Below, in pieces: positions 49,027 to 63,352 of a stretch of 64,000 bases of DNA; the stretch's first letter is position 1; each line of letters starts with the position of its first letter. The position numbers were made by a program, and so were the translations under genes. Below the pieces are notes generated by a model that saw only the letters and a list, made by a program, of their open reading frames with translations, was not told the origin of the DNA and made no database searches. Origin of the DNA: Streptosporangium brasiliense (lineage in GTDB: Bacteria; Actinomycetota; Actinomycetes; Streptosporangiales; Streptosporangiaceae); contig NZ_JAUSRB010000002.1 of assembly GCF_030811595.1 (NCBI RefSeq), positions 5,084,001-5,148,000 of the forward strand, given 5' to 3'.

Positions 49027-49818
49027 TCAGTTCGACGGCTGCAGATATCCGTTGGCGACCAGCCACTCCACCGACACTTCCGCGGAGGTCTGGGGCGCCT
49101 CGGGAATGTGCTTGCTGACCAGGTGGTACTGCCGTCCCTCGCCTTCCTGCTGGAACGCCGCGGCGGCCGGACCGCCGTCCACTTTGAACTCCTTCACCAC
49201 CTTGTAGGTGTGGTAGCTGCATATGTATTTCGGAGCCGCCGGGAAGGTGTTGAGATTGTTCGGGGGCAGGGCACGCCCGACGTAGGAGGCGCCGAGCGGG
49301 GAGACGAAGGAGCCCTTCTCGCCGCCGAAGCGGTCGAGGGCCGTGCCCACCGGCAGCGTCACGGTCCTGATCAGCGGCCTGCCGTTGGAGTAGCCGCCGG
49401 AGTGGGCGAAGCCGTAGTCCGGCGGATAGCGCCACCCGCCGGCGGCCTCGTCCCAGTAGCGGTCGACGAACTCCTGCGGGGAGGTCCCGTTCAGCGGCCT
49501 GTAGTCACGCAGGATCCTGCCGAGCGGCCCGTCCTTCGGCAGGTACTTCGGACCCAGGATCGGGTCGTCGTCCAGGTAGGGCGGCCCGCAGACCTGCCTG
49601 CCGGGCTTGTCGTCCCCGGTGGGGGCCGTCCGCCCGGTGGCCGCCGCCGGGGTGGCGGGGGGCGCCGCTCCGCCGGCCGCAGGGGCGGCGGCGGCCGGCG
49701 GCTCGGGCGGACCGGAGGCCGCGAACGCGCCGGTGCCGGCCTGGGCCGCGACGCCGGTGAAGGCAGCGGTGACGATGCCGACGGCGGCCAGTGGTGCGCG
49801 TCGTCGAAAATGCCGCAC
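49027..49818 (-). CDS. Secreted TNT-domain NADase
   Basis: 263 residues starting at GTG 49818 with AGGAGG 4 bases upstream. Signal peptide (about 1-34, FAASG), a Pro/Ala-rich linker, a conserved entry (LGPKYLPKDGPLGRILRDYRP and FVDRYWDEAAGGWRYPPDYGF), then the TNT fold: TLPVGTALDRFGGEKGSFVSPLG, ALPPNNLNTF, YHTYKVVKEF, and a C-terminal VEWLVANGYL. In the tuberculosis necrotizing toxin this domain hydrolyses NAD to nicotinamide and ADP-ribose. Two Cys may pair. No immunity gene is adjacent; export should protect the host. Divergent from the LacI/ADP-ribosylglycohydrolase operon. Confidence 0.85.
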   Translation of the reverse strand: MRHFRRRAPLAAVGIVTAAFTGVAAQAGTGAFAASGPPEPPAAAAPAAGGAAPPATPAAATGRTAPTGDDKPGRQVCGPPYLDDDPILGPKYLPKDGPLGRILRDYRPLNGTSPQEFVDRYWDEAAGGWRYPPDYGFAHSGGYSNGRPLIRTVTLPVGTALDRFGGEKGSFVSPLGASYVGRALPPNNLNTFPAAPKYICSYHTYKVVKEFKVDGGPAAAAFQQEGEGRQYHLVSKHIPEAPQTSAEVSVEWLVANGYLQPSN

Positions 49819-50269
49819 GGATCCTCCTGATGAACTCACGCGGAGCTGGATCGGATGTCTGGGGTCGAGCTGCGGACCGGCGTGGGCGGGCCCGGAGGCG
49901 GATGCCTCCTCTCCGCCCGGGGCGTTCTCGTACGGATCCGGTCGGTCCAGGGCGGAAAGCGGGAGAAGCGCCGCCCGCCCGGAAACGGAATTGCCGATCC
50001 AGGCGTACCCGGCCTTCTTTTCCGTGCCACCGGGAAAGAGTTAATCGAATGACAAAAACGGAACGACAAAAGGCGTGGAAGTGCGCATCGTTAATTGCGT
50101 TCAGAAATGCGGTCGACCGACATTCATTGTCGATATAGGGCATTTATCCGACGATTGAGCCCATCGGTCCGGCGGGCGACGCGCCCGCCCGTCGGGGCGG
50201 CTTCCGGGCGCGGCCCGATCGGGGCGCCCCGCCGCCGGCCCCTTTAACGTGCTGTTACTCGATCGTGAC

Positions 50270-50311: not shown

Positions 50312-50323
50312 GTAAACGTTTTC
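50312..50323. promoter_or_regulatory. LacI operator 1 (GTAAACGTTTTC)
   Basis: One mismatch from the perfect site at 50344 and 32 bases from it, about three helical turns. Located at the predicted transcription start, so binding would block the promoter. Confidence 0.75.
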
Positions 50324-50343
50324 AGTAAATCACCAAGATCGCG

Positions 50344-50355
50344 GTAAACGTTTAC
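50344..50355. promoter_or_regulatory. LacI operator 2 (GTAAACGTTTAC)
   Basis: Perfect 12-bp palindrome with the central CG typical of LacI-family sites, 17 bases upstream of the LacI start at 50373. With operator 1 it can support cooperative repression and autoregulation. Confidence 0.8.
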
Positions 50356-50372
50356 AGAAAGGTGTGGTCTCT

Positions 50373-51386
50373 GTGAGCGACGGGCCGACGATCACCACGA
50401 TCGCGGAGCGGGCGGGTGTCTCGATCGCCTCGGTCTCCCGCGTGCTCAACGGGCTGCCGACCCGCGAGGACACCGTGCGCCGGGTGCTCAGCGCCGCCGA
50501 CGAGCTGGGATACGTCCCCAACTCGGTGGCCCGGTCGCTGAAGTCGCGCCGGACCAACCAGGTGGCCTTCGCGATGGCCGACATCGGCAACCCGGTCTAC
50601 CTGACGATGATCCGCGAGATCCAGCCGGTGCTGAAGGCGGCGGGATACCGCCTCGTGCTGCACTCCACGGACGCGGACGTGGCCGAGGAGATCGACGTGC
50701 TCCGCAGCCTCGGAGAGCGCTACGTGGACGGGCTCATCATGATCCCGCTGCGGGTGAGCGAGGCGCACCTGAAGGCCGTCGAGGCCGCCCGGGCCCCCGT
50801 CGTCATCATCGGCTCGGTGCCCGACAGCACGCGGGTGGACAACGTCCGCACCGACTCGCGCACCGGCGTACGGCTGGCGCTGGACCACCTCCACTCCCTG
50901 GGACGCCGCCGCATCGGGTTCGTCAACGGCCCCCTGGACACCGTCCCCGGCTCGGCCCGCTCCACGGCCTACGCCGAGGGCCTCGCCGACCTCGGCCTGC
51001 CCTACGACGAGAACCTGGTGGAGATCGGGGACTTCTCCCGCTCCGAGGGGGCGCGGGCCGTGAGCCGGCTGCTGTCCAGGGTCCCCGACCTGGACGCGAT
51101 CATGTGCGCCAACGACCTGATCGCCCTCGGCGCCCTGGACGTCCTGCGCCGGGCGGGCAGGCGGGTGCCGCAGGACGTGGCGGTGGTCGGCATGGACGAC
51201 ATCGACCAGGCCGCCGTCGCCTGGCCCGCCCTGACCAGCATCTCCCTCGGCTCGGCCGAGCGCGGCCGGATGGCGGCGGAGCTGCTCCTGGACCGGCTGG
51301 GCGACGGCGACCGGGACCCCAAGGTGATCACCGTTCCGCCCCGCCTGGTGGTCAGAGCATCGACCGTGGGAGAGGAGACGCCGTGA
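50373..51386 (+). CDS. LacI family regulator of the ADP-ribosylglycohydrolase operon
   Basis: 337 residues. N-terminal LacI helix-turn-helix and hinge (TITTIAERAGVSIASVSRVLNGLP, then YVPNSVARSLKS) and sugar-binding domain (VAFAMADIGNPVYLTMIREI, VVIIGSVPD, IMCANDLIALGALDVLRRAG, VGMDDIDQAAV). GTG 50373 chosen with AAAGG about 10 bases upstream; GTG 50364 is in frame but too close to it. First gene of a tightly coupled operon (GTGA overlap with the next gene), so it probably represses it and is released by the transported sugar or ribosyl compound. Confidence 0.93.
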   Translation: MSDGPTITTIAERAGVSIASVSRVLNGLPTREDTVRRVLSAADELGYVPNSVARSLKSRRTNQVAFAMADIGNPVYLTMIREIQPVLKAAGYRLVLHSTDADVAEEIDVLRSLGERYVDGLIMIPLRVSEAHLKAVEAARAPVVIIGSVPDSTRVDNVRTDSRTGVRLALDHLHSLGRRRIGFVNGPLDTVPGSARSTAYAEGLADLGLPYDENLVEIGDFSRSEGARAVSRLLSRVPDLDAIMCANDLIALGALDVLRRAGRRVPQDVAVVGMDDIDQAAVAWPALTSISLGSAERGRMAAELLLDRLGDGDRDPKVITVPPRLVVRASTVGEETP

Positions 51387-52294
51387 CCCTCACCGCCGAC
51401 CGGCCGGCCAGGACGGTGACGCCGAACCGGCCCCGCAGGGGCGGGCGGCAGGGGCGCGAGACGCTGCTGCTGATGCTGCCCGCCCTGGTGCCCGTGCTGG
51501 TCTTCAGCGTGGGGCCGCTGCTGTACGGGATCTTCCTGGCGTTCACCGACGCGCGCTCCGGGCGCAACGCGGTCACCTCGTTCGTCGGGCTGTCGAACTT
51601 CGGCGACCTGCTGGCCGACGGGGACTTCTGGGCCTCCTTCCGGATCGGGATGATCTGGGCCGTCTCGGTGACCGTGCTGCAGTTCCTGGCCTCGCTGGGG
51701 CTGGCGCTGCTGCTCAACCAGGATCTGCGCTTCCGGGGGTTCGCCCGGGTGCTGGCGGTGGTGCCCTGGGCGATGCCACCGGTGGTCATCGGACTGATGT
51801 GGCGGCTGGTCTACCACCCGGACGCCGGGATCCTCAACGGCATGCTGGGCACCGAGATCGACTGGCTCAACGACTTCTCCGTCGCGCTGCCCGCGGTGAT
51901 CGTCGTCGGGATCTGGACCGGAATGCCGCAGACCACGGTGGTGCTGCTGGCCGGCCTGCAGAGCGTCCCCAAGGAGCTCTACGAGGCGGTCGAGGTGGAC
52001 GGCGCGGGCGTCTGGCGCAAGTTCTGGAACATCACCCTGCCCCAGCTCCGCCCGGTCATCGTGGCCATCACCTCGCTGGACTTCGTCTGGAACATCAACC
52101 AGTTCGGGCTGGTCTACGTCCTGACCCAGGGCGGCCCCGGCGGGCAGACGCGCCTGCCCATGCTCTTCGCCTACGAGGAGGCCTTCCGCTACGGCTTCTT
52201 CGGCTACGCGGCCACCCTGGGCGTGGCGATCGTGATCGTCGTGCTGGCCGTGCTCGGCGTCTATCTCTGGCGGCAGATGCGGGAGGCGAGCTGA
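51383..52294 (+). CDS. ABC sugar permease, MalF type
   Basis: 303 residues, six predicted membrane segments after a basic N-terminus (PNRPRRGGRQ). EAA loop EAVEVDGAGVWRKFWNITLPQLRP, the site for ATPase docking in carbohydrate uptake (CUT1) importers. Starts GTG 51383 overlapping the LacI stop; ribosome site GAGGAG. Works with the MalG-type permease directly downstream. Confidence 0.92.
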   Translation: MTLTADRPARTVTPNRPRRGGRQGRETLLLMLPALVPVLVFSVGPLLYGIFLAFTDARSGRNAVTSFVGLSNFGDLLADGDFWASFRIGMIWAVSVTVLQFLASLGLALLLNQDLRFRGFARVLAVVPWAMPPVVIGLMWRLVYHPDAGILNGMLGTEIDWLNDFSVALPAVIVVGIWTGMPQTTVVLLAGLQSVPKELYEAVEVDGAGVWRKFWNITLPQLRPVIVAITSLDFVWNINQFGLVYVLTQGGPGGQTRLPMLFAYEEAFRYGFFGYAATLGVAIVIVVLAVLGVYLWRQMREAS

Positions 52295-52295
52295 C

Positions 52296-53114
52296 ATGGG
52301 CAAGGCACTGCGTTATCTGGCCCTGGCCGGCTACGTCGTCTTCCTGGCGTTCCCGCTGCTCTGGCTGCTGTCCACGGCGCTGAAGACGCCGCAGGAGATG
52401 GCCAGCCTGCACCCGACGTGGATCCCGCGCGCGCCGACGCTGACCAACTTCGCCGACGCCTTCGGCGAGCAGGACCTGGTCGGCAGCGGGCTGCGCAGCC
52501 TCGTGGTGGCGGTGGCCACGGCGGTGCTCACCGTGGTCCTGGCGCTGCCGGCGGCCTACGCCCTCGCCCGCTACCGCTCGATGATCAACCGGATCGCGCT
52601 CGGCTGGGTGCTGGTCAGCCAGGTCTTCCCGTTCATCCTGATCATCATCCCGCTGTTCATGGTGCTGCGCAGGCTGGAGCTGTCGAACACGCTGCCCGGC
52701 CTGACCCTCGTGCACGTCACCTTCGTGCTGCCGTTCGCGCTGTGGATGCTCCAGGGATACGTGCGCGCCGTACCCCGTGAGCTGGAGGAGGCCGCGGCGG
52801 TGGACGGCGCAGGCCGGGTGCGCTCGCTGCTGAGCGTCGTCGCCCCGCTGCTCGCCCCGGGAGTGGTGGCGACGCTGCTGTTCGCGTTCATCTCCTCCTG
52901 GAACGAGTTCCTGTTCGCCCTGATCGTCCTGAAGGACCCGGACGTGGCGACCCTGCCGCTGACGCTGGTGAAGTTCACCGGCGCCGAGGGGGTCGTACGG
53001 CTCGGGCCGCTGGCGGCCGCCTCGCTCCTGGCGACGGTCCCGAGTCTCGTGTTCTTCGCAGTCATCCAGCGGCGGCTGAGGTCCGGCCTGATGGCCGGGG
53101 CCGTCAAGGGATAG
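52296..53114 (+). CDS. ABC sugar permease, MalG type
   Basis: 272 residues with six membrane segments and the EAA loop EEAAAVDGAGRVRSLLSVVAPLLAP. Begins 1 base after the MalF-type stop, so translation is coupled. No ATP-binding subunit follows; many actinobacterial CUT1 importers share MsiK-type ATPases. Confidence 0.92.
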   Translation: MGKALRYLALAGYVVFLAFPLLWLLSTALKTPQEMASLHPTWIPRAPTLTNFADAFGEQDLVGSGLRSLVVAVATAVLTVVLALPAAYALARYRSMINRIALGWVLVSQVFPFILIIIPLFMVLRRLELSNTLPGLTLVHVTFVLPFALWMLQGYVRAVPRELEEAAAVDGAGRVRSLLSVVAPLLAPGVVATLLFAFISSWNEFLFALIVLKDPDVATLPLTLVKFTGAEGVVRLGPLAAASLLATVPSLVFFAVIQRRLRSGLMAGAVKG

Positions 53115-53140
53115 CCCCACCCCCCGATAGGAGAAGTCAT

Positions 53141-54433
53141 ATGCGTAAGAAGGTCGCGCTGGCCGCAGGTCTCCTCGTGCTGGCCGCCGGATGCGCCTCG
53201 GAGCCGCCCGCGGCCGCCCCCGACGGACCGGTGAAGATCAAGTTCCAGAGCCTCGCCTGGCAGAAGGAGTCGATCGCGGCCAACAAGGAGCTGGTCGACG
53301 AGTGGAACAAGGCCAACCCCAAGATCCAGGTCGAATACGTCCAGGGGAGCTGGGACAACGTCAACGACCAGCTCGTCACCTCCTTCGAGGCGGGTGACCC
53401 GCCGGACGTCATCCACGACGACTCCCCGGCCCTGTCCGGCTTCGCCAGCCGCGGCTATCTGCTGGACCTCAAGGACAAGGTCCCGGCCGAGCTGAAGAGC
53501 GACATCCCCCAGGCGGCCTGGGACACCGTCACCTTCGCCGACGGCAAGGGCGGGCAGGGCGTGTACGGCGTGCCGTTCCTGCAGGAGTCGCAGGTCATCA
53601 TCGGCAACAAGAAGCTGCTCGACAAGGCCGGCGTGCGGCTCCCGACCCCGGACAGCCCGTGGACGTGGGACGAGTTCGCCGAGGTCTCCAAGAAGCTCAC
53701 CAAGGGCGACTCCTACGGCGTCGCCTGGCCGATGAAGTCGCCGGTCAACAAGGTGCTCAACCTGGGCCTCAACTTCGGGGGCACCTTCTTCCGGACCGAC
53801 GGCGGCAAGACGACGGTCAAGGTCGAGGCGGGGGAGCGCGAGGTGCTCCAGCGCATCCACGACCAGCTCTACAAGGACAAGTCCGCCGACCCGGCCGCGC
53901 TCGGCATGGGCGCCGCCGACCCGCTGCCCGGCTTCTACGCCGGCAAGTACGCGATGCTGCCCGTCGGCGTCTACCTGCGCCAGCAGGTCGTGGAGCAGGC
54001 GCCGGACGGCTTCGAGTGGATCACCCTGCCGCCGCTGAAGGGCGCCACCGCCGAGCAGGGCGCGGTCTCGCAGACCCTGTCGGTCGCGGCCGACAGCAAG
54101 TATCCCGAGCAGTCGCTGAAGTTCATGTCCTTCTTCCTGAACGGCTCCAACCAGGTCAAGCTCGCCAAGGGCGACTGGCTGCTGCCGACCTCGGTCAAGG
54201 CCGCGGGCGACCCCGCCATGACGACCGAGGAGAACGGCTGGAACGTGGCGACCGCCTCGGTCAAGAACCTCGTGGTCGCGCCCTTCCTGAAGGTCAACGG
54301 CTTCGACGAGTGGAAGAGCAAGGTGGCCACGCCGACGCTGCAGCAGTTCTTCGCCAACAAGATCACCCTTGACGACGCGGCGAAGAAGCTGGTCGACGAG
54401 GGCAACAAGGTGCTGGAGCGGTACAACCAGTGA
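53141..54433 (+). CDS. ABC transporter sugar-binding lipoprotein
   Basis: 430 residues. Lipoprotein signal with LAAGC (Cys18), then an extracellular solute-binding fold: IKFQSLAWQKESIAANKELVDEWNK, VQGSWDNVNDQLVTSFEAGDPPDVIHDD, YGVPFLQESQVIIGNKKLLDKAG, and WTWDEFAEVSKKL. Strong GATAGGAG ribosome site. This is the receptor for the two permeases upstream; the ligand is unknown. Overlaps the next gene's start. Confidence 0.92.
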   Translation: MRKKVALAAGLLVLAAGCASEPPAAAPDGPVKIKFQSLAWQKESIAANKELVDEWNKANPKIQVEYVQGSWDNVNDQLVTSFEAGDPPDVIHDDSPALSGFASRGYLLDLKDKVPAELKSDIPQAAWDTVTFADGKGGQGVYGVPFLQESQVIIGNKKLLDKAGVRLPTPDSPWTWDEFAEVSKKLTKGDSYGVAWPMKSPVNKVLNLGLNFGGTFFRTDGGKTTVKVEAGEREVLQRIHDQLYKDKSADPAALGMGAADPLPGFYAGKYAMLPVGVYLRQQVVEQAPDGFEWITLPPLKGATAEQGAVSQTLSVAADSKYPEQSLKFMSFFLNGSNQVKLAKGDWLLPTSVKAAGDPAMTTEENGWNVATASVKNLVVAPFLKVNGFDEWKSKVATPTLQQFFANKITLDDAAKKLVDEGNKVLERYNQ

Positions 54434-55404
54434 CCGTGACGCATCGGGGGCGCGCCCGGGGGTGTCTGCTCGGCCTCGCGGCCGGCGACGCCCTCGGGCG
54501 CCCGGCGGAGAACCTCTCGCCCGAACAGATCGCCGCCCGCTGGGGCAGGCTGACCGAGATCGACGGCGGCGGCACCGACGACACCGAATACACCATCTTC
54601 GCGGCGTCCCTGATCGTACGGCACGGGCACGCGCTGACCCCGCAGGACGTCGCCCGGGCCTACCGCGAGGAGATCCTCCCCCTGGCCGAGGGGCCGATGA
54701 AGGGCGCCGGCTTCTCCGAACTCGGCGCCGTCCAGGCGCTCAGGCAGGGCCTCGAACCGCCGCTGACCGGCCGGTGGCACCGGCACGGCTGGTCGGACGG
54801 CCTGGCCATGCGCGCGGCGCCGTACGGCGTCTTCGCCGCGGGAGACCCCGGCGAGGCCGCCCGCCTGGTGGAGGTCGACGGCAGCGTGAGCAACGCGGGC
54901 GAGGGCATCCTCGGCGGCCGCGCCGTCGCCGGCGCGGTGGCCGCCGCGATGACGGGCGCCTCCCCGGAGGAGGTGGTCGCGGCCGGGCTCGGCGTGATCC
55001 CCGACGACTCCTGGACCGCCCGCAACCTCAACCGCGCCCGGGACGTCGTCCGCCACGCCGGCTCCTCCGGACCGGACGAGGTCGCCGCGCGGTTGCACGG
55101 GGCGGTCGTGGTCCGGCACTACCCGTGGACGGACCTGGCCCCCGAGGCCGTCGCCCTCGCCTTCGCCGCCTACCTGCTGGGCGGGGGAGAGGTCGAGGAG
55201 TCCGTGGTGGTCGCGGCGAACCTGGGACGCGACGCCGACACCACCGCTGCCATCGCGGGCGCCCTCGCCGGGGCGGGGCGCGGCGAGGCGGCGGTGCCGG
55301 AGCGGTGGGCACGGCAGATCGGCCCGGTCGAGGGGCGCTGCCTGCCGGTGACCGCGGGACGGCACGTGCTAGAGGTGGCCGATCAGCTCGTGGAAGGGGC
55401 GTAG
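54430..55404 (+). CDS. ADP-ribosylglycohydrolase family, first of four
   Basis: 324 residues of the DraG/ARH fold. GCLLGLAAGDALGRPAE (11-27), metal-binding TDDTEYT (49-55), NAGEGILGG (155-163) and GRDADTTAA (266-274) are intact, so both Mg sites that activate water should form. ARH enzymes cleave ADP-ribosyl N- or O-glycosidic bonds (arginine, serine, phosphate). The start overlaps the binding-protein stop by 4 bases. Whether the substrate is a macromolecule or an imported small ribosyl compound is unknown; the operon suggests the latter. Confidence 0.92.
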   Translation: MTVTHRGRARGCLLGLAAGDALGRPAENLSPEQIAARWGRLTEIDGGGTDDTEYTIFAASLIVRHGHALTPQDVARAYREEILPLAEGPMKGAGFSELGAVQALRQGLEPPLTGRWHRHGWSDGLAMRAAPYGVFAAGDPGEAARLVEVDGSVSNAGEGILGGRAVAGAVAAAMTGASPEEVVAAGLGVIPDDSWTARNLNRARDVVRHAGSSGPDEVAARLHGAVVVRHYPWTDLAPEAVALAFAAYLLGGGEVEESVVVAANLGRDADTTAAIAGALAGAGRGEAAVPERWARQIGPVEGRCLPVTAGRHVLEVADQLVEGA

Positions 55405-55407
55405 GCG

Positions 55408-56373
55408 ATGATGTCGGGGGACAGGATCCTGGGGGCGTTCGCCGGGCTGGCGATCGGCGACGCGGCGGGCTGGCCGTCGTCGCGGCACCGGGCCGGGGTG
55501 CACGCGCCGTGGAGCAGGCGGCTCCACCGCGAGCTCGACGCCTTCGCCGAGGAGCACCGGGTGACCACGCTGCCGGTGCCGTTCGCGCTCAACCAGCCGG
55601 TCGCGCCGCTGGCCGTCGGCCCGTCCGACGACGCCGAATGGCTCGCCTGGACCGTGCTCACCGTCGACCAGGAGCGCGCGGCGGCCTTCGCCGCCCTGAC
55701 CGGAAGAGACGACATCAGGGCGCGGATCTCGGTGCGGACCGCGCTGGACAACCTCGCGCGCGGCCTCGGACCGCCGGCCAGCGGCCACGACAACCCGCAC
55801 TTCTTCGACGACGCCGCGGTCGTGCGGGCGGTCGCCTTCGGCGCCGCGGGGCTGGACCCCACGGCCGACGCCCAGGTCACCAACGCCGGTGACGGCGTGC
55901 TCGGGGCGGTCGCGATGGCCCGGGCGATCAGTGTCCTGGTGGGCGGCGGGGCGATGGGCGAGGCCGTGGAGGCCGCGCTGGAGGCGCTCCCCGAGGACAC
56001 CGTCATCGGCCGCGCGACCCGTGTCGCGCTCGCGGTCACGAGGGGGGCCGGCGACCCGTTCGAAGCGGTGCCCGCCCTGGACGCGGCGCTGTTCGACCAC
56101 GTCTACAGCTACGGGGTCGCCGCCGCCGAGACGTTCCCGGTGGCGCTCGCGCTGGCCGAGGCCGCCGGCGGCTCGCCGCGCACCGCCGTGCCGGCCGCCG
56201 CCTGCCTGAGCGCCGCGGCGGACTCCGCGCCGGCCCTGACCGGCGCGCTGACCGGCGCCTTCACCGGCCACGACGCGCTGCCGCGCGGGTGGAGCACCGT
56301 TCTGACCGGCTGCTGCCTGCCGGAGCTGGCGGGCACTGATCTACTGGACATCGCGAGGGGATGGATTTCATGA
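55408..56373 (+). CDS. ADP-ribosylglycohydrolase family, second of four, degenerate metal site
   Basis: 321 residues. The helix-1 motif ILGAFAGLAIGDAAG is intact and NAGDGVLGA (159-167) matches paralogue 1. The first metal motif is SDDAEW (73-78), missing the second Thr. The C-terminal GRDADT motif is replaced by SAAADS (268-273), losing the first Asp. Activity is therefore altered or lost, or another residue substitutes. Starts 4 bases after paralogue 1. As I see it, it is the most divergent of the set, perhaps a specialised or regulatory subunit. Confidence 0.85.
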   Translation: MMSGDRILGAFAGLAIGDAAGWPSSRHRAGVHAPWSRRLHRELDAFAEEHRVTTLPVPFALNQPVAPLAVGPSDDAEWLAWTVLTVDQERAAAFAALTGRDDIRARISVRTALDNLARGLGPPASGHDNPHFFDDAAVVRAVAFGAAGLDPTADAQVTNAGDGVLGAVAMARAISVLVGGGAMGEAVEAALEALPEDTVIGRATRVALAVTRGAGDPFEAVPALDAALFDHVYSYGVAAAETFPVALALAEAAGGSPRTAVPAAACLSAAADSAPALTGALTGAFTGHDALPRGWSTVLTGCCLPELAGTDLLDIARGWIS

Positions 56374-57584
56374 GCGCAGCAGGTGAAGCGGCGGCCCGGC
56401 CGTCGGGCACGGGCGGGGACGCTCCGGTGAGCGCGGGCAGGGGGACCCTGGAGGACAGGGCCGTCGGATGCGTGACGGGCGCCGCCGTCGGCGACGCCCT
56501 CGGCGGCGCCACCGAGGGCTGGACGCCCGAGCAGATCCACGGGCGTTACGGCGGGCACGTCGAGGGCCTGGTCCCGCCGTTCTTCGAGGACTGGCGCAAC
56601 GCCCGGCCCATCGCCCCCTACCACAAGGGCGACGGCCACATCACCGACGACACCCTGATGACGCACGCGCTGATCAGGGTCTACGAGCGGGCCGGGAGCC
56701 ACCTGGACGCCTACGCGGCGGCCGAGCACCTGGTCCCGGAGATGATGGGCGAGAAGCGCTGGATCCCGGAGCTGGAGACCGAGGCGCTGCCGCTGCACCG
56801 GGTCTTCCTGGCGGAGAAGTGGCTGGTGCTGCGGCTGCACTACGGCCACGTCGACCCGCGTGAGGCCGGGACGGGCAACATCGTCAACTGCGGCGCGGCG
56901 ATGTACATGGCGCCGGTCGGCGTGGTGAACGCCGCCGACCCCGACGCCGCCTACGCCGAGGCGATCGACCTGGCCGGCGCCCACCAGTCCAGCTACGGCC
57001 GCGAGGCGGCCGGGGTGCTCGCCGCCGCGGTGGCCGAGGCCATGCGCCCGGGCGCGACGGCCGACTCGGTGGTGGCCACCTGCCTCCGGCTCGCCAAGGA
57101 CGGCACGGCGGCGGCCATCGACGCGGTCTGCTCGGTGGCCCGCGGCCTCGGCCACTGGGACGGCTCCTTCGAGCGGCTGCGCGCCGCCATGAAGCCCTAC
57201 GACACCGTCGCCGACACCTACCGCGACCAGGGGCTCGGCGCCCGCCGCCCGAGCCGCCTGCACAGCATCGAGGAGCTCCCGCTCGCCCTGGCGTTCCTGC
57301 TGATCGCCAAGGGCGACTACCGCGACACCGTCCTCGGCGGCGTCAACTACGGCCGCGACGCCGACTCCATCGCCTCCATGGGCGGCGCCATCGCCGGCGC
57401 CCTCGGCGGGCGCGAGGCCGTCCCCGCCGACTGGGTCGACCAGATCTCCACCGCCAGCCGCACCGACCTCGTCACCCCCGGCCTGGACCTGGCCCGCGTC
57501 GCGCGCCGCATCCACGCCGCCGACCTGGAGCGCCGCCGGGCCCACGAGTCCGCCTTCGCCGCGCTCCTCGGGGACGCCGGATGA
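56370..57584 (+). CDS. ADP-ribosylglycohydrolase family, third of four
   Basis: 404 residues, about 25 longer at the N-terminus than the family core. Intact sites: GCVTGAAVGDALGGATEG (33-50), ITDDTLMT (91-98), GRDADSIA (328-335), and the C-terminal acidic SMGGAIAGALGG. A central extra region (NARPIAPYHKGDG to YHVDPREAGTGNIVN) is unlike paralogue 1, so substrate may differ. ATG 56370 overlaps the previous stop (ATGA) with GAGGGG 9 bases upstream; ATG 56361 has no ribosome site. Confidence 0.92.
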   Translation: MSAAGEAAARPSGTGGDAPVSAGRGTLEDRAVGCVTGAAVGDALGGATEGWTPEQIHGRYGGHVEGLVPPFFEDWRNARPIAPYHKGDGHITDDTLMTHALIRVYERAGSHLDAYAAAEHLVPEMMGEKRWIPELETEALPLHRVFLAEKWLVLRLHYGHVDPREAGTGNIVNCGAAMYMAPVGVVNAADPDAAYAEAIDLAGAHQSSYGREAAGVLAAAVAEAMRPGATADSVVATCLRLAKDGTAAAIDAVCSVARGLGHWDGSFERLRAAMKPYDTVADTYRDQGLGARRPSRLHSIEELPLALAFLLIAKGDYRDTVLGGVNYGRDADSIASMGGAIAGALGGREAVPADWVDQISTASRTDLVTPGLDLARVARRIHAADLERRRAHESAFAALLGDAG

Positions 57585-58978
57585 TCCGCCTGACCTGGGT
57601 GCAGCCGGAGGATCTGGTCGGCCACGAGCTGCGCCAGGCGGCCGAGGACGGCCGCGAGGTGACGGAGATCGCCGCGCGCTGGCACGCCGCGGGAGGACAC
57701 GACGCCCCGCCCCGGGCGGGGGCCTCGCCCGAGATCCCCCCGGCCCGGCTGCGTGGCCTGGCCGAGGAGCTGCTCGACGAGCTCGCCGCGCTCCCGTCCC
57801 CGCTCCCCGAGCCCTCCACCCTGGCCGGGATCGTCGCGGCCTGCCCGCGGTGGCCGGCCGCCCGGCGACCGGCGGGCGCCCCGTCCCCGCAGGCCACGGA
57901 CCGGATGCTGGGGGCGTGGCTCGGCCGGGCGGCGGGATGCGTGCTGGGCAAGCCCGTGGAGAAGATCCCCCGGGAGGGGATCAGGGCCATCGCCGAGGCG
58001 ACCGGGAACTGGCCGATCCGGGGATGGTTCACCGCGCGGGGCCTGCCCGCCGAGATCGGCGCGCGCTGGCCGTGGAACCGGCGCAGCGCGGTCAACAGCC
58101 TCGCCGAGAACATCGACGGCGTCCCCGAGGACGACGACCTCAACTTCGCGCTGCTGGCCCTGGCCCTGCTCGAACGGCGGGGCCGCGCCTTCACCACCGA
58201 CGACGTCGCGCAGCTCTGGCTGGACGAGCTGCCCGGCGGCCGGGTGTTCACCGCCGAGCGCGCCGCCTACCGCAACCTGCTGACGGGCCTGGAGCCGCCC
58301 TCCCCGGAGGGCGGGCCGGAGCCGGACGGGGCCGCCCCCGTCTCCACGGCGACCTTCCGCAACCCCTTCAGGGAGTGGATCGGGGCGCTGATCAGGGCTG
58401 ACGTCTACGGCTGGGCCAACCCCGGCGACCCGGCGACGGCCGCCGAGTTCGCCTGGCGCGACGCCAGGCTCAGCCACACCGCCAACGGGATCTACGGCTC
58501 CATGTTCGTGGCCGCGATGTGCGCCACGGCACTGGTGGCCTCCTCCGCCGAGGAGGTGGTCGCCGCGGGTCTCGCCGTGATCCCGCCGCGGTCCCGGCTG
58601 GCCGCCGCCGTACGGCTGGCCGCCGAGGACGCGCGCGAGGAGGAGGACTTCGAGCGGGTCGTCGACCGCCTCCACGGACGCCACGGGGCCCTGCACTGGG
58701 TCCACACGATCAACAACGCCGCGCTGATCACGGCCGCGCTGGTCCACGGCCGGGGCGACTTCACCGCCTCGATCGCCGGGGCCGTGGCGGGCGGCTGGGA
58801 CACCGACTCGGCGGGGGCGACCGTGGGCTCCATCGCCGGCGCGCTGCGCGGCGCGTCCGCGATCCCGCCGCAGTGGTCGTTGAAGAACCGGCTGGCCAGC
58901 AGTATCACCGGCTTCGACGGCATCGGCCTGGACGAGCTGGCGGCCCGCACACTGGCCCTGGCGACGGAGGAACCATGA
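57581..58978 (+). CDS. ADP-ribosylglycohydrolase family, fourth of four
   Basis: 465 residues. A ~100-residue N-terminal extension (EDLVGHELRQAAEDGREV ... RLRGLAEELLDELAALP) precedes the hydrolase domain. MLGAWLGRAAGCVLGKPVE (109-127) has Cys-Val-Leu where others have Asp-Ala-Leu; the metal motif is EDDDLNF (183-189), and GGWDTDSAGA (404-413) is intact. These Glu/Asp variants are typical of a distinct bacterial ARH subgroup, so it may be active on a different glycosidic bond. Overlaps both neighbours by 4 bases (ATGA). Confidence 0.9.
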   Translation: MIRLTWVQPEDLVGHELRQAAEDGREVTEIAARWHAAGGHDAPPRAGASPEIPPARLRGLAEELLDELAALPSPLPEPSTLAGIVAACPRWPAARRPAGAPSPQATDRMLGAWLGRAAGCVLGKPVEKIPREGIRAIAEATGNWPIRGWFTARGLPAEIGARWPWNRRSAVNSLAENIDGVPEDDDLNFALLALALLERRGRAFTTDDVAQLWLDELPGGRVFTAERAAYRNLLTGLEPPSPEGGPEPDGAAPVSTATFRNPFREWIGALIRADVYGWANPGDPATAAEFAWRDARLSHTANGIYGSMFVAAMCATALVASSAEEVVAAGLAVIPPRSRLAAAVRLAAEDAREEEDFERVVDRLHGRHGALHWVHTINNAALITAALVHGRGDFTASIAGAVAGGWDTDSAGATVGSIAGALRGASAIPPQWSLKNRLASSITGFDGIGLDELAARTLALATEEP

Positions 58979-59874
58979 TCTCGGTATTCGGCAGTGTCAA
59001 CATGGACCTGGTGGCCTACGTCGAGGCCGCCCCCGGCCTCGGCGAGACCGTGACCGGCCGCGCGTTCCGCACGGTCCCCGGTGGCAAGGGCGCCAACCAG
59101 GCCATCGCCGCCGCCCGCGCCGGAGCCGAGGTCGCCTTCCTCGGCGCCGTCGGCGACGACGCCTTCGGCCCCGAGCTGCGCCGGACGCTGGCCGGGGCCG
59201 GAGTCGACGTCAGCGGTCTGCGCACCGTGCCCGGCCCCTCCGGCATCGCCCAGATCGTCGTCGACGACCAGGGCGGCAACTCCATCATCGTGGTCCCCGG
59301 CGCCAACGGCGCGGTGAGCGCGCCCTCCGAGGCCGAGCTGGAGGTCATCGCCCGCTCCGACGTCCTGCTCCTGCAGCTCGAACTCCCCATCGGGGCGGTC
59401 ACCGCCGCGGCCCGCGCGGCGCGGGCCGCGGGGACCACGGTGATCCTCACCCCCGCCCCCGTCCAGCCGCTCCCCGACGAGCTGCTGGAGGCCGTGGACG
59501 TGCTCGTCGCCAACGAGCACGAGGCCGCGGCGATCACCGGGCGCGCCGACCACGAGGAGGCGGTGCGGGAGCTGCGGACCAGGGTCGACTGGGTGATCAT
59601 CACCCTGGGGTCGCGCGGCGCGCTCAGCGCCGGACCCGGCACCGCCCCGGCCCTGCGCGTCCAGGCGCCCAAGGTGCGGGCGGTGGACACCACGGCGGCG
59701 GGCGACACGTTCGTGGGGGCGCTCGCCGCCGCCCTCGTCGAGCGGCAGCTCCCCGACCGGGCGGTCCGGTTCGCCGGCGCCGCCGCGGCCCTGTCCGTCC
59801 AGCGGGAGGGGGCCAGCACCTCCATGCCCGCCCGTGCCGAGATCGACCGGAGCCTCGCCGGCTCCGACGCCTGA
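58975..59874 (+). CDS. Ribokinase-like PfkB kinase
   Basis: 299 residues. PfkB sugar-kinase fold: N-terminal FGSVNMDLVAYVEAAPGLGET, GGKGANQA (36-43), and C-terminal anion-hole/catalytic motif VDTTAAGDTFVGALA with the catalytic Asp. The GGKGANQ/AGDTF pair is closest to ribokinase, so it would make ribose-5-phosphate from ribose. Starts at ATG overlapping the stop of paralogue four (ATGA). Last gene of the uninterrupted run; it links the hydrolases to the pentose-phosphate pathway. Confidence 0.92.
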   Translation: MISVFGSVNMDLVAYVEAAPGLGETVTGRAFRTVPGGKGANQAIAAARAGAEVAFLGAVGDDAFGPELRRTLAGAGVDVSGLRTVPGPSGIAQIVVDDQGGNSIIVVPGANGAVSAPSEAELEVIARSDVLLLQLELPIGAVTAAARAARAAGTTVILTPAPVQPLPDELLEAVDVLVANEHEAAAITGRADHEEAVRELRTRVDWVIITLGSRGALSAGPGTAPALRVQAPKVRAVDTTAAGDTFVGALAAALVERQLPDRAVRFAGAAAALSVQREGASTSMPARAEIDRSLAGSDA

Positions 59875-60185
59875 CAGCCGCCGTACGGCCCGCCGGACCC
59901 GCACCCGCCGCCCGGCGGCGCCGGGCGGCGCCGGGCGGCCCGCCGTACCGGCGCCACGGGGGAGCCCCAGGCATGAACGGCGCGCCGGACGGCCGGCGGC
60001 CGGGCCACGGCCGGTCGGCCCGTCGGCCCCGGTGCCGCCGGAGCGGGGGGGGCCACGTCATGTCATGGGTGCGAGCGGTGCGCCGGCGTGGGGCCCGTGC
60101 CCCCCGGACACACTGTGAAGCCCCTGTGCACCCACCCCGACCTCGAACGGTCGCCGACGATCGGCTCGCGCCGCATGGAGGAGAT
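59875..60185. other. 311-bp gap after ribokinase
   Basis: Very GC-rich non-coding DNA. It holds a hairpin at 59908-59928 and a repeated GCGCCGGGCG, then a stretch before the CoA-transferase ribosome site GGAGGAG. No gene is supported. Confidence 0.6.
59908..59928 (+). terminator. Possible terminator of the operon
   Basis: CCGCCCGGC pairs with GCCGGGCGG around GGC, 33 bases after the ribokinase stop. No U-tract. It may end the LacI operon before the CoA-transferase gene. Confidence 0.4.
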
Positions 60186-61346
60186 ATGAAGGCCCTGGAC
60201 GGTGTCCGCGTGCTGGACCTGGCGACCCTGTTCGCCGGTCCCATGGCGGCGATGCTGCTCGGCGACTACGGAGCCGAGGTGATCAAGGTCGAGCACCCCG
60301 CCAAACCCGACCCCTCGCGCGGCCACGGCCCGGAGGGGTTGTGGTGGAAGATGCTCGGCCGCAACAAGCGCGCGATCACGCTCGACCTGTCCACGGCCGA
60401 GGGCCAGGACCTGCTGGTGGAGCTGGTGCGCGAGGCCGACGTGGTGATCGAGAACTTCCGTCCGGGGACGCTGGAGCGGTGGAACCTCTCCTACGAGCGG
60501 CTCAGCGCGGCAAACCCCGACCTGGTGCTGGCCAGGGTGACCGGGTTCGGGCAGTTCGGCCCCTACGCGAAGCGGCCCGGGTTCGGCACGCTCGCCGAGG
60601 CGATGAGCGGCTTCGCGGCGATGACCGGCGAGCCGGACGGCCCGCCGACGCTGCCGCCGTTCGGCCTGGCCGACGGCATCTGCGCCCTCGCCACCGCCTT
60701 CGCGGTGATGACCGCGCTGCGCTCGGGCCGGGGACAGGTGGTCGACCTGTCCATCATCGAGCCGATCCTGACCGTGCTCGGCGCCCAGCCCACCATCTAC
60801 GACCAGCTCGGCACCGTCCCGCCGCGCACCGGCAACCGCTCGGTCAACAATGCCCCCCGCAACACCTACCGCTGCAAGGACGGCTCCTGGGTCGCGGTCT
60901 CCACCTCGGCCCAGAACATCGCCGAGCGGGTGATGCGCCTGGTCGGCCGCCCGGAGGTGATCGGCGAGCCGTGGTTCGCCAGCGGATCGGGCCGGGTCGC
61001 GCACGCCGACGAGCTGGACGGCGCCGTGGCGGCCTGGGTGGCCGAGCACACCCGCGAGGAGGTCCTGGCCGCCTTCGAGCAGGCCCAGGCCGCCGTCGCC
61101 CCCATCTACGACGTGCGCGACATCATGGCCGACCCGCAGCTCGCGGCCCTGGACGCGATCACGACCGTCGAGGACCCCGAGCTCGGCCCGGTGCGGATGC
61201 AGAACGTCATGTTCCGGCTCACCGGCACCCCCGGTGAGATCCGCTGGACCGGCCGCCCGCACGGCGCGGACACCGGCGAGGTCCTCGGCGCCCTCGGCCT
61301 GACCGCCGAGGACCTCGCCGCCCTGCGGGACAAGGGGGTCATCTAG
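60186..61346 (+). CDS. CoA-transferase family III (CaiB/BaiF)
   Basis: 386 residues starting ATG 60186 with GGAGGAG. Family III signature LDGVRVLDLATLFAGPMAAMLLGDYGAEVIKVEHP, GHGPEGLWWKMLGRNKRAITLDL, ENFRPGTLERW, GFGQFGPYAKRPGF, and the helical C-terminal half with NTYRCKDGSWVAVS. Such enzymes exchange CoA between short acids such as formate, oxalate, succinate or carnitine derivatives; the catalytic Asp is in the EAMSGFAAMTG region. It lies 311 bases after the ribokinase, so it may or may not belong to that operon. Its stop overlaps a small antisense gene. Confidence 0.88.
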   Translation: MKALDGVRVLDLATLFAGPMAAMLLGDYGAEVIKVEHPAKPDPSRGHGPEGLWWKMLGRNKRAITLDLSTAEGQDLLVELVREADVVIENFRPGTLERWNLSYERLSAANPDLVLARVTGFGQFGPYAKRPGFGTLAEAMSGFAAMTGEPDGPPTLPPFGLADGICALATAFAVMTALRSGRGQVVDLSIIEPILTVLGAQPTIYDQLGTVPPRTGNRSVNNAPRNTYRCKDGSWVAVSTSAQNIAERVMRLVGRPEVIGEPWFASGSGRVAHADELDGAVAAWVAEHTREEVLAAFEQAQAAVAPIYDVRDIMADPQLAALDAITTVEDPELGPVRMQNVMFRLTGTPGEIRWTGRPHGADTGEVLGALGLTAEDLAALRDKGVI

Positions 61347-61756: not shown

Positions 61757-62158
61757 CTACGCCCCGTCCCAGAGCGCGGCGGCCGCCTCGGCGCAGGCCA
61801 CGTCCTGGGCCACGGTGCCACCGCTGACCCCGACCGCGCCCACCACCCTGCGGCCCTCGCCTCGGTCCCAGAGCGGGATGCCGCCGCCGAAGCACACGTA
61901 CCGGTCACCGGCCAGGCCGTACAGGTCTCCGCCCGGCGCGACCAGGGGCGCGAGGTCGGCGGTGGGCATCCGGTGGGCCACCGCGGTGTAGGCCTTGCCG
62001 GGGGCCAGCGCCGGCCCGGCGATCTCCGCGCCGTCCATCCGCTGGAAGGCGACCAGGTGGCCGCCCGCGTCGACCACCGCCACCGAGACGAGGGCCCCTT
62101 CACGCCCGGCCTGTTTCACCGAGGCCTCACACATGCGCAGCGCGAGTTCGAGGTTCAA
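61757..62158 (-). CDS. GlcG/HbpS-like (DUF336) protein
   Basis: 133 residues, whole-family length. LALRMCEASVKQAGREG, VSVAVVDAGGHLVAFQRMDGA and GGTVAQDVACAEAAAALW match the GlcG/HbpS fold. HbpS of Streptomyces is a secreted haem-binding sensor partner; GlcG is found in glycolate operons. No signal peptide is present here, so a cytoplasmic role is likely. TTG 62158 chosen with AAAGGAG 5 bases upstream. Divergent from the phosphotransferase. Confidence 0.85.
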   Translation of the reverse strand: MNLELALRMCEASVKQAGREGALVSVAVVDAGGHLVAFQRMDGAEIAGPALAPGKAYTAVAHRMPTADLAPLVAPGGDLYGLAGDRYVCFGGGIPLWDRGEGRRVVGAVGVSGGTVAQDVACAEAAAALWDGA

Positions 62159-62278: not shown

Positions 62279-63352
62279 ATGCAGGCCCACGATCTGTCCG
62301 CCGGGGGCGACGTGCAGGCCCATGATCTGTCCGCCGGGGGTGACGTGCTGGCCCGCGTGCACGAGGCCGCCCGCGCGGCGGTGCGGATCCACGGGCTGCC
62401 GGACGCCGAGGTCACGCTGGTCAACGTGTCGGAGAACGCCACCTACCGGGTGGACGACCCGGCCACCGGGGCCCGGTCCATCCTGCGGGTGCACCGCCTC
62501 GGCTACCACGCCACCCCGGCGATCCTGTCCGAGCTCGCCTGGCTGGAGGCGCTCCGCGAGGAGGCCGGGATCCGGACGCCCCGGGTGCTGCCGGCGCCGG
62601 ACGGGTCCCGGGTGCTGACCGTCCCGGGCCCGCAGCCCCGTGACTGCGTGATGTTCGAGTTCCTGCCCGGGACCGAGCCGCCGCAGGACCGGCTGGTGCC
62701 CGGCTTCGAGCGGCTCGGCGCGATCACCGCCCGGATGCACCGGCACGCGCGGAGCTGGCCGCGCCCCACGGGGTTCACCCGCTTCCACTGGGACTACGAC
62801 GCCGCTCTCGGCGCCCGGTCGCGGTGGGGCCGCTGGCAGGACGGCGTGGGGATGGACCCGCAGGCGCGGGCCGTGCTGGAGCGGCTCGACGGGGAACTGC
62901 GCGCCCGGCTCCGCCGCTTCGGCCGGGGCGCAGGCCGCTACGGCCTCATCCACGCCGACCTGCGCCTGGCCAACCTGCTGGTGGTGGGCGACGGGCCGCC
63001 CAGCGTCATCGACTTCGACGACTGCGGCTTCGGCTGGTACCTCTACGACCTGGCCGCCGCGCTCAGCTTCATCGAGCACCATCCCCAGGTCCCCGAGATG
63101 GTCGACTCCTGGGTGCGGGGCTACCGTACGGTCCTCGACCTGCCGGCCGAGGACGAGGCCGAGATCTGGACCTTCATCATGTTCCGCCGCCTGCTGCTGG
63201 TCGCCTGGATCGGCACGCACACCGGCGTCGACATCGCCGCCGAGCTCGGCGCCGGCTACACCGAGGGCACCTGCGAGCTGGCCGAGCGGTTCCTGTCGGG
63301 CGGCGGGGGCGGCGGACGGCGCAGGCCGCCACTCCCGGCGACATCCCTTTGA
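62279..63352 (+). CDS. Aminoglycoside phosphotransferase-fold kinase
   Basis: 357 residues of the APH/choline kinase fold. LIHADLRLANLLV (catalytic loop, HxDxxxxN) and SVIDFDDCGFGWYLYDLA (metal-binding DFD) are clear; the N-lobe glycine-loop region is VSENATYRV with VHRL later. The substrate is not predictable: family members phosphorylate aminoglycosides, homoserine, choline or macrolides. Residues 2-12 and 13-23 are an exact repeat, QAHDLSAGGDV, encoded by a 33-bp tandem duplication. The C-terminal Gly/Arg-rich tail is disordered. Confidence 0.88.
   Translation: MQAHDLSAGGDVQAHDLSAGGDVLARVHEAARAAVRIHGLPDAEVTLVNVSENATYRVDDPATGARSILRVHRLGYHATPAILSELAWLEALREEAGIRTPRVLPAPDGSRVLTVPGPQPRDCVMFEFLPGTEPPQDRLVPGFERLGAITARMHRHARSWPRPTGFTRFHWDYDAALGARSRWGRWQDGVGMDPQARAVLERLDGELRARLRRFGRGAGRYGLIHADLRLANLLVVGDGPPSVIDFDDCGFGWYLYDLAAALSFIEHHPQVPEMVDSWVRGYRTVLDLPAEDEAEIWTFIMFRRLLLVAWIGTHTGVDIAAELGAGYTEGTCELAERFLSGGGGGGRRRPPLPATSL
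62282..62347. repeat. 33-bp in-frame tandem duplication
   Basis: Bases 62282-62314 and 62315-62347 differ at two third positions only and encode QAHDLSAGGDV twice at the N-terminus of the phosphotransferase. A recent duplication in frame. Confidence 0.85.

What the first reader, a model, noticed from the sequence alone, without database searches (positions are those of the whole stretch)
50312..59874. Operon with four paralogous ADP-ribosylglycohydrolases, a sugar ABC importer and a ribokinase
LacI regulator, two CUT1 permeases, a binding lipoprotein, four consecutive ARH-family genes and a PfkB ribokinase are joined by overlaps of 1-4 bases. Each ARH has a different variant of the metal motifs, so they are not simple copies. 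The combination suggests import of ribosyl-containing compounds and stepwise release of ribose, which ribokinase sends to the pentose-phosphate pathway. I know of no characterised system of this layout; the family is otherwise known for removing ADP-ribose from proteins or DNA.
Basis: partly seen in the sequence, partly recalled or inferred. Interest (0 to 1): 0.87.

Follow-up and report, generated by a model that had tools for sequence, protein, structure and literature searches.

The report
Riboside-scavenging operon with four ADP-ribosylglycohydrolase-family enzymes
A sugar-type uptake operon, kept intact across many soil actinomycetes and echoed in rhizobia and Deinococcus, uses enzymes of a family known for removing ADP-ribose from proteins, apparently as ordinary glycosidases that free ribose (and probably an acid) for food; its exact substrate is unknown.

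Summary
In detail: LacI, two CUT1 permeases, a binding lipoprotein, four PF03747 proteins and a ribokinase lie at 50364-59874 behind two LacI operators. All eight genes LacI to ArhD keep one order in 30 of 39 fetched family loci, and variants occur in Streptomyces, Microbacteriaceae, Jiangellaceae, alphaproteobacterial plasmids and Deinococcus. The four paralogues are old, separate lineages; ArhB has lost one metal-binding aspartate. Best explanation: an inducible importer plus intracellular ARH-fold glycosidases that release ribose, phosphorylated by RbsK, and an acid that is activated and cleaved as a CoA ester. Regulation, import and catabolic purpose are well supported by conservation; ribose rests on the ribokinase, which some loci lack; the acid and the substrate are inferred; no activity was tested. 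E. coli yegTUV (transporter, ARH, PfkB kinase) is the closest described layout, so the principle is not wholly new; the full design was not found in ten searches of an open-access library.

The parts
50312..50323 (.). LacI-type operator O1, GTAAACGTTTTC
   Evidence: Sites with up to 2 mismatches stand upstream of the operon's LacI in 88 of 90 loci (71 with two or more; the 90 contain repeats); one mononucleotide shuffle of each upstream had none in 90
50344..50355 (.). LacI-type operator O2, GTAAACGTTTAC, perfect palindrome
   Evidence: One of only two exact copies in the 10.49 Mb genome; conserved as above
50364..51386 (+). LacI-family regulator
   Evidence: PF00356, PF13377; median 78% identity in 30 family loci
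51383..52294 (+). CUT1 permease A
   Evidence: PF00528; median 84% identity in 30 loci
52296..53114 (+). CUT1 permease B
   Evidence: PF00528; median 84% identity in 30 loci
53141..54433 (+). solute-binding lipoprotein
   Evidence: PF01547; model pLDDT 90.9; Foldseek best hits are oligosaccharide-binding proteins, first 5f7v with cycloalternan, 25% identity
54430..55404 (+). ArhA, ARH-family hydrolase, complete metal motif
   Evidence: PF03747 192 bits; GTDDTEY and GRD.DT conserved in 37 rows
55408..56373 (+). ArhB, ARH-family, one metal-ligand Asp replaced
   Evidence: PF03747 83 bits; SDDAEW and AAADS; four distant relatives keep TDDTE but have Q(S/T)DS
56361..57584 (+). ArhC, ARH-family core enzyme; the start may lie further in (56427)
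   Evidence: PF03747 162 bits; median 85% identity in 30 loci; TDDT and GRD.DS conserved in 32 rows
57581..58978 (+). ArhD, ARH-family core enzyme with an N-terminal extension of about 110 residues
   Evidence: PF03747 173 bits; DDD and G.DTDS conserved in 37 rows
58975..59874 (+). RbsK ribokinase
   Evidence: TIGR02152 305.2 bits, over the cut-off 299.65
60186..61346 (+). CoA-transferase family III (CaiB-type), next gene of the conserved operon; in the window separated from RbsK by 311 bases
   Evidence: PF02515 405 bits; present in 44 of 63 named loci; in the loci it overlaps the gene before it in 32 of 50 RbsK-CaiB and 15 of 20 ArhD-CaiB junctions; no terminator-like site found in 59700-60300

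Best explanation
An inducible scavenging operon for a ribofuranosyl-containing small glycoside. Supported by sequence and conservation: LacI with paired operators in front of one operon; a CUT1 importer with a binding lipoprotein. No ATPase gene is in the operon; a shared ATPase is assumed. Inferred: in the cytosol the ARH-fold proteins act as metal-dependent O- or N-glycosidases rather than as protein de-ADP-ribosylases. ArhC and ArhD do the core cleavage, ArhA (and perhaps ArhB, which may be a one-metal or non-catalytic partner) extends the range of linkages. RbsK turns the freed ribose into ribose 5-phosphate. Inferred, weaker: the aglycone is a hydroxy-dicarboxylic-type acid, activated by the CaiB-type CoA-transferase and split by a CitE-like lyase where that gene is present, as in malyl- or citramalyl-CoA cleavage.
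For: Order conserved in 30 of 39 family loci; SBP only with ArhD, 33 of 33; operator in 88 of 90, and no such site in the whole fetched stretch (16-21 kb) of 16 Streptomyces-type loci that lack LacI and SBP; RbsK over the ribokinase cut-off. A gene annotated ribokinase lies with ARH genes also in Deinococcus L164 (51% to RbsK), Agrobacterium L159 (43%) and Mycolicibacterium L163 (36%). An ARH is fused to an alpha-galactosidase-type NPCBM_assoc domain in L062; an inosine-uridine nucleoside hydrolase lies beside an ArhD relative in L060. In Sphingopyxis L170 a PfkB kinase, c31 (the gene that stands in RbsK's place in L052 and L058) and a CoA-transferase sit with a GH127-type furanosidase and no ARH. 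CaiB and CitE are present in 44 and 41 of 63 named loci; Ensifer and Sinorhizobium carry a CoA transferase and CoA ester lyase at the end of a LacI-CUT1-ARH operon. Operon CaiBs fall on one side of a branch, 1 change against 13.6 shuffled, though branch support is only 58/81.
Against: RbsK is missing in 19 of 63 full-flank named loci, so ribose is not proven as the constant product. CaiB and CitE are missing in 15 of 63 loci that otherwise have LacI, importer, ArhA, ArhB and RbsK, all 15 Nonomuraea (names). The same CaiB type occurs in 22 of 150 family genomes without an ArhD match. In 17 stand-alone CaiB loci fetched (10 from genomes without ArhD, 7 from genomes with it) it lies near MmgE/PrpD and cyclase genes in 12 and an amidohydrolase gene in 9, so it may be a portable module. 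The window lacks the CitE gene at the site, and its CaiB stands 311 bases from RbsK. The binding protein's best fold matches bind oligosaccharides, largely of glucose. No ARH-family member is known to me as a general ribosidase (recalled).
Confidence: 0.52

Rival explanations
1. The same catabolic design, but the sugar is not ribose: the ARHs cleave another glycoside with a cis-diol (for example apiose, lyxose or an arabinofuranose), and the ribokinase-like protein, where present, acts on a side product or another pentose.
For: RbsK absent in 19 of 63 full-flank loci; c31 in its place in L052, L058 and the Microbacteriaceae loci (L114 and L134 have both); GH127-type protein (named for beta-L-arabinofuranosidase) in the Sphingopyxis variant; binding protein nearest to oligosaccharide binders, AbnE for arabino-oligosaccharides at rank 11
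Against: RbsK passes the curated ribokinase model, and genes annotated ribokinase recur with ARHs in three other lineages
Confidence: 0.27
2. Scavenging of ADP-ribose, NAD breakdown products or ADP-ribosylated peptides from outside.
For: Known chemistry of the family (relatives are DraG, ARH3, Tri1); a TNT-domain (NAD-glycohydrolase type, recalled) gene stands upstream in the window; one solved family of such binding proteins holds a dinucleotide
Against: None of the four reaches the DraG or Tri1 cut-offs (best 64.5 of 337 and 47.3 of 490). No nucleotide-processing gene among the operon genes. The TNT gene has no relative in any of 128 related loci searched. CUT1 importers are usual for sugars (recalled)
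Confidence: 0.11
3. Intracellular reversal of protein or DNA ADP-ribosylation that happens to sit beside sugar genes.
For: Family name and solved relatives
Against: Conserved, operator-preceded co-operonic layout with importer, kinase and CoA enzymes in several families; four paralogues; no ADP-ribosyltransferase among the operon genes
Confidence: 0.03

Closest known systems
E. coli yegTUV with GgaR (YegW)
   Same: ARH-family gene next to a PfkB kinase and a transporter, under one dedicated repressor (PMC10819704, passages seen)
   Different: MFS symporter and GntR regulator instead of CUT1 and LacI; one ARH; YegU only 24-26% identical over most of its length to ArhA-C, with only short matches to ArhD; no CoA enzymes beside it; that paper links it to ADP-glucose and glycogen
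DraG, ARH3 and Tri1 ADP-ribosyl hydrolases
   Same: Sequence family and most metal-binding motifs
   Different: Below the curated cut-offs for DraG and Tri1; genetic setting is catabolic; ArhB lacks one metal ligand
LacI-CUT1 sugar utilisation operons of actinomycetes (recalled)
   Same: Regulator, importer and intracellular hydrolases in one operon
   Different: The hydrolases are ARH-family and not a classical glycoside hydrolase family; CoA-transferase and CitE-like lyase at the end
Itaconate/citramalate degradation (RipC/Ccl) and CaiB-type CoA-transferases
   Same: The lyase of L036 is nearest to RipC_Ccl (173.9 bits) and the window's transferase to CaiB-type succinate-glutarate CoA-transferase (228.7 bits)
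   Different: Both far below the equivalog cut-offs (375 and 750); attached to an ARH operon

Membership tests
ADP-ribosylglycohydrolase family PF03747 | profile score over Pfam's cut-off | tested here: met
   All four, 83-192 bits against 26.2
ADP-ribosylglycohydrolase family PF03747 | complete metal-binding motifs (Glu, TDD, DxDT/S; roles recalled) | tested here: inconclusive
   Met in ArhA and ArhC; ArhD has DDD and DTDS; not met in ArhB, which has AAADS
DraG equivalog TIGR02662 | score over 337.05 | tested here: not met
   Best 64.5, ArhA
Tri1 equivalog NF041672 | score over 490 | tested here: not met
   Best 47.3, ArhC
ADP-ribosyl hydrolases (function) | hydrolysis of ADP-ribosyl substrates | not testable with these tools
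   No assay possible
CUT1 ABC importer | SBP_bac_1 protein plus two BPD_transp_1 permeases | tested here: met
CUT1 ABC importer | own ATPase gene in the operon | tested here: not met
   None among the operon genes; alphaproteobacterial versions carry ugpC
Ribokinase TIGR02152 | score over 299.65 | tested here: met
   305.2, a narrow margin; NF008353 is not met (274 of 341)
E. coli yegTUV system | ARH plus PfkB in one operon | tested here: met
   Window genes
E. coli yegTUV system | orthologous ARH, MFS transporter and GntR regulator | tested here: not met
   24-26% identity to ArhA-C; CUT1 and LacI instead
CoA-transferase family III | PF02515 over the cut-off | tested here: met
   404.9 of 23.3
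CitE-like lyase partner | PF03328 gene directly after CaiB | tested here: not met
   Met in relatives such as L036 and L058, but no such gene follows CaiB in the window (the next genes are HbpS-like and APH); nearest match in the genome lies about 170 kb away, 50% identical and with a stop inside

The most novel reading that the evidence does not exclude
The ARH fold has been recruited as a set of general furanosidases for nutrition: a widespread bacterial pathway, shared by actinomycetes, rhizobia and deinococci, that imports an unrecognised class of environmental ribosides of organic acids and splits them into ribose 5-phosphate and, through a CoA-transferase and a CitE-like lyase, acetyl-CoA plus a 2-oxo acid.
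Probability: 0.33. Interest if true: 0.8.

Novelty: new variant of a known kind. Interest (0 to 1): 0.62.

Why it matters
The ARH family is studied almost wholly as a reverser of ADP-ribosylation (recalled), and many genes carry that name by default. A conserved, repressor-controlled nutrient operon with four ARH lineages would show that part of the family are glycosidases, give a testable function to E. coli YegU and relatives, and point to a class of ribosides (perhaps of organic acids) in soil that may not have been catalogued. The substrate can be sought by ordinary ligand screens on one binding protein.

Tried and rejected
Literature: ten library searches. Only search listings were seen except PMC10819704 and PMC10434189, seen as passages. 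None of the listings described an ARH-CUT1-ribokinase operon; most papers of subscription journals are not in that library, so this is not proof of absence.

Recent tandem duplication of the ARHs: rejected. Paralogues are 25-33% identical where BLAST aligns them, and ArhC-ArhD gave no match at E<=1, against orthologue medians of 69-85%.

Conserved regulon beyond the operon: the exact operator occurs once more in the genome, just upstream of a secreted-looking PF00756 esterase gene (L067); not pursued, since many LacI proteins share such sites (recalled).

Fold of c31: predicted with 7 rows, mean pLDDT 54.9, too poor to use. Its PDB sequence matches cover only the FGE-like C-terminal part.

Binding-protein ligand from fold: the 50 matches listed are 17-25% identical and mostly oligosaccharide binders.

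Active-site reading of the adenosine-binding part of the ARHs: no model coordinates were available, and I did not base a claim on it.

CaiB as operon-specific marker: rejected, 22 of 150 family genomes have it without an ArhD match.

Caveats on counts: genes outside the window were found by a simple G+C-based caller, and some calls merge or miss genes (ArhC missed in L121, L124, L150), so presence counts for ArhA and ArhB are lower bounds; RbsK was labelled by BLAST best match, and one of the 44 (L141) is only 43% identical. Loci L027-L065 and L079-L158 overlap in content (L027 and L079 look like one contig), so the counts contain repeats.
Full report
Where it is. The window is G000:C2:5084001-5148000 of a 10.49 Mb actinomycete genome. 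The nearest named locus is Streptosporangium minutum (ArhC 92%), and its contig has the same length (9928 bases) as the fetched contig of the same-genus genome G071, so the window is most likely Streptosporangium (inference).

Observation. LacI, two CUT1 permeases, a binding lipoprotein, four PF03747 proteins and a PfkB kinase lie on the + strand from 50364 to 59874. The kinase passes the ribokinase model TIGR02152 narrowly (305.2 against 299.65). Four of the eight junctions overlap by 4 bases, one by 13, three have gaps of 1, 26 and 3. The genome has one more ARH-family gene elsewhere. Two LacI-type palindromes stand at 50312 and 50344.

Is it conserved? ArhD relatives occur in 38 of 150 sampled genomes of the family, the window's own included, at E<=1e-20. 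I fetched 39 neighbourhoods. In 30 of 39 all eight genes LacI-PermA-PermB-SBP-ArhA-ArhB-ArhC-ArhD are present in this order; RbsK follows in 22 of those 30. The other nine are an incomplete set without LacI, importer and ArhC (L054), a minimal form with only ArhC and ArhD (L058), and seven divergent loci (L059-L065). The SBP orthologue is found in 33 of 150 genomes, all 33 among the 38 with ArhD (Fisher p 3e-28, ignoring relatedness). ArhC occurs in 10 of 396 genomes drawn from the phylum, the window's own included; the other nine share one genus, which by comparison is probably Streptomyces.

Wider distribution. Of these 80, 63 had full flanks and an ArhC gene call; among the 63: ArhD 62, ArhA 55, ArhB 51, LacI and all importer genes 48 each, RbsK 44, CaiB 44, CitE 41, c31 6. 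Of the 17 left out, three lacked an ArhC call because of my gene caller and 14 lacked flanks. Fifteen of the 63, all Nonomuraea, have LacI, importer, ArhA-D and RbsK but no CaiB or CitE.

The operon is often longer than reported. Directly after RbsK, or after ArhD where RbsK is absent, comes a family III CoA-transferase, then a HpcH/HpaI (CitE-like) lyase. The junctions are tight: the genes overlap in 32 of 50 RbsK-CaiB, 15 of 20 ArhD-CaiB and 48 of 69 CaiB-CitE junctions (locus set with some repeats). The window has the CoA-transferase at 60186-61346, 311 bases behind RbsK with no terminator-like site found between, but no lyase after it; the best match elsewhere in the genome is 50% identical with a stop inside. 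The lyase (of L036) is nearest to RipC/Ccl and CitE, and the transferase to CaiB-type succinate-glutarate and formyl-CoA transferases, all below equivalog cut-offs (PDB relatives). Operon CoA-transferases sort apart from stand-alone ones on a 45-row tree (1 change, shuffled mean 13.6), but the branch has only 58/81 support. The same transferase type exists in 22 of 150 family genomes without an ArhD match. In 17 stand-alone loci that I fetched (10 from genomes without ArhD, 7 from genomes with it) a CitE-like gene is near in 17, MmgE/PrpD and cyclase genes in 12, an amidohydrolase in 9. So the pair looks like a portable acid-catabolism module that became attached to the ARH operon (inference).

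Regulation. GTAAACGTTTAC with up to two mismatches stands upstream of the operon's LacI in 88 of 90 loci, twice or more in 71; one shuffled copy of each had none (the 90 contain repeats, and the shuffle keeps base content only). Sixteen loci of the Streptomyces type without LacI and SBP have no such site in the whole fetched stretch; nor have the nine divergent or plasmid loci checked, except for one two-mismatch hit in L160. LacI is thus very likely a local repressor (inference).

The ARHs. Within the window the paralogues are 25-33% identical where BLAST aligns them (ArhC-ArhD not at all at E<=1); orthologues have medians of 73 (A), 69 (B), 85 (C) and 74% (D). Metal motifs are complete in ArhA and ArhC and present in ArhD with DDD in place of TDD; ArhB has AAADS where the others have (R/W)DxDS/T, and four distant relatives have Q there. 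Profiles match MJ1187 and Tri1 (ArhC, at E<=1e-10), these and DraG (ArhD), and DraG, Tri1 and ARH3 (ArhA, ArhB) in the PDB, but none reaches the DraG or Tri1 equivalog cut-off.

Variants that bear on function. Alphaproteobacterial plasmids: in 6 of 6 annotated regions with an ArhC relative the order is LacI-permease-permease-SBP-ArhC-like; 5 of 6 add a 700-residue ARH whose C-terminal half has no Pfam match, 2 of 6 a CoA transferase and CoA ester lyase (L160, L165), 1 of 6 a ribokinase (L159). An archaeal relative (29%, Halalkalicoccus L166) has no LacI or CUT1 importer beside it. Three further regions had no annotation and were not read; in Agrobacterium L167 the long ARH stands with ugpC only. 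Deinococcus L164: LacI, permeases, SBP, ArhD-like, ribokinase (51% to RbsK), 700-residue ARH. Mycolicibacterium L163: LacI, ArhD-like, SBP, permeases, ribokinase. L060: ArhD-like beside importer genes, a nucleoside hydrolase, ThuA, PhyH and sugar dehydrogenase/isomerase-type genes. L062: ARH fused to an alpha-galactosidase-type NPCBM_assoc domain. Sphingopyxis L170: a PfkB kinase, c31, a GH127-type protein and a CoA-transferase, with a PEP-mutase-family lyase nearby, so a classical furanosidase family stands where the ARH stands elsewhere.

Binding protein. The model is good (pLDDT 90.9). Foldseek's 50 listed matches are mostly oligosaccharide-binding proteins of 17-25% identity; a dinucleotide-binding family also appears. 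This fits a glycoside-like ligand but does not identify it.

Interpretation. A repressor-controlled importer with intracellular hydrolases and a kinase is a nutrient pathway; that part I hold at about 0.85. That the ARHs cleave a ribosyl bond rests on the family's ribose chemistry (recalled) and on the recurrent ribokinase; about 0.5. That an acid is the second product rests on the CaiB-CitE attachment; about 0.4. Protein de-ADP-ribosylation is unlikely here.

Known or new. E. coli yegTUV is the closest described layout (PMC10819704 passages). The full combination was not found in ten searches of the open-access library. I rate it a new variant of a known kind, a sugar or riboside utilisation operon with an unexpected enzyme family.

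Noticed in passing
window 49027-49839 (-): Divergent upstream neighbour has a TNT domain (PF14021; NAD-glycohydrolase type, recalled) and a secretion-like N-terminus; no relative in 128 related loci.
   Followed up: partly
L067:10003-12138 (G000:C2 near 3796000): The only other exact GTAAACGTTTAC in the genome stands about 20 bases upstream of a PF00756 esterase plus beta-propeller-repeat protein, possibly co-regulated.
   Followed up: partly
L178-L194: CaiB-CitE pair recurs away from ARHs with MmgE/PrpD, putative cyclase, hydantoinase-like amidohydrolase, IclR, TRAP or branched-chain ABC genes: looks like a separate acid or cyclic-amide pathway.
   Followed up: partly
L059:1467-8592: ArhA-ArhB-RbsK variant runs into UPF0261, PEP_hydrolase (PF09370), xylose isomerase-like and Gfo/Idh genes; the first two are the halves of the plant Tm-1 type protein (recalled).
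   Followed up: partly
L052:14096-16174, L058:10487-12457, L170:3298-5433: c31: about 650-710 residues, no Pfam match in the N-terminal part, C-terminal FGE-sulfatase-like domain; stands in RbsK's place in some operons. Fold prediction failed (pLDDT 55).
   Followed up: partly
L175 (G000:C2:4967738-4968583): CitE-like match at 50% identity with one TGA inside, about 170 kb from the operon that lacks the lyase gene.
   Followed up: no
L168:7951-12410: Clinical Enterobacter hormaechei plasmid record carries LacI, a 711-residue ARH and a solute-binding protein between chiQ/chiP and glnS-nag genes.
   Followed up: no
L070-L078: Streptomyces-type loci carry ARH, CaiB and CitE genes (RbsK in some) without LacI and SBP; in L070 beside VIT1, lgt and trp-type genes. 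How the substrate enters there is unknown.
   Followed up: partly
window 62279-63352 (+), 61757-62158 (-): APH-family phosphotransferase and HbpS-like protein downstream; no link to the operon seen.
   Followed up: no
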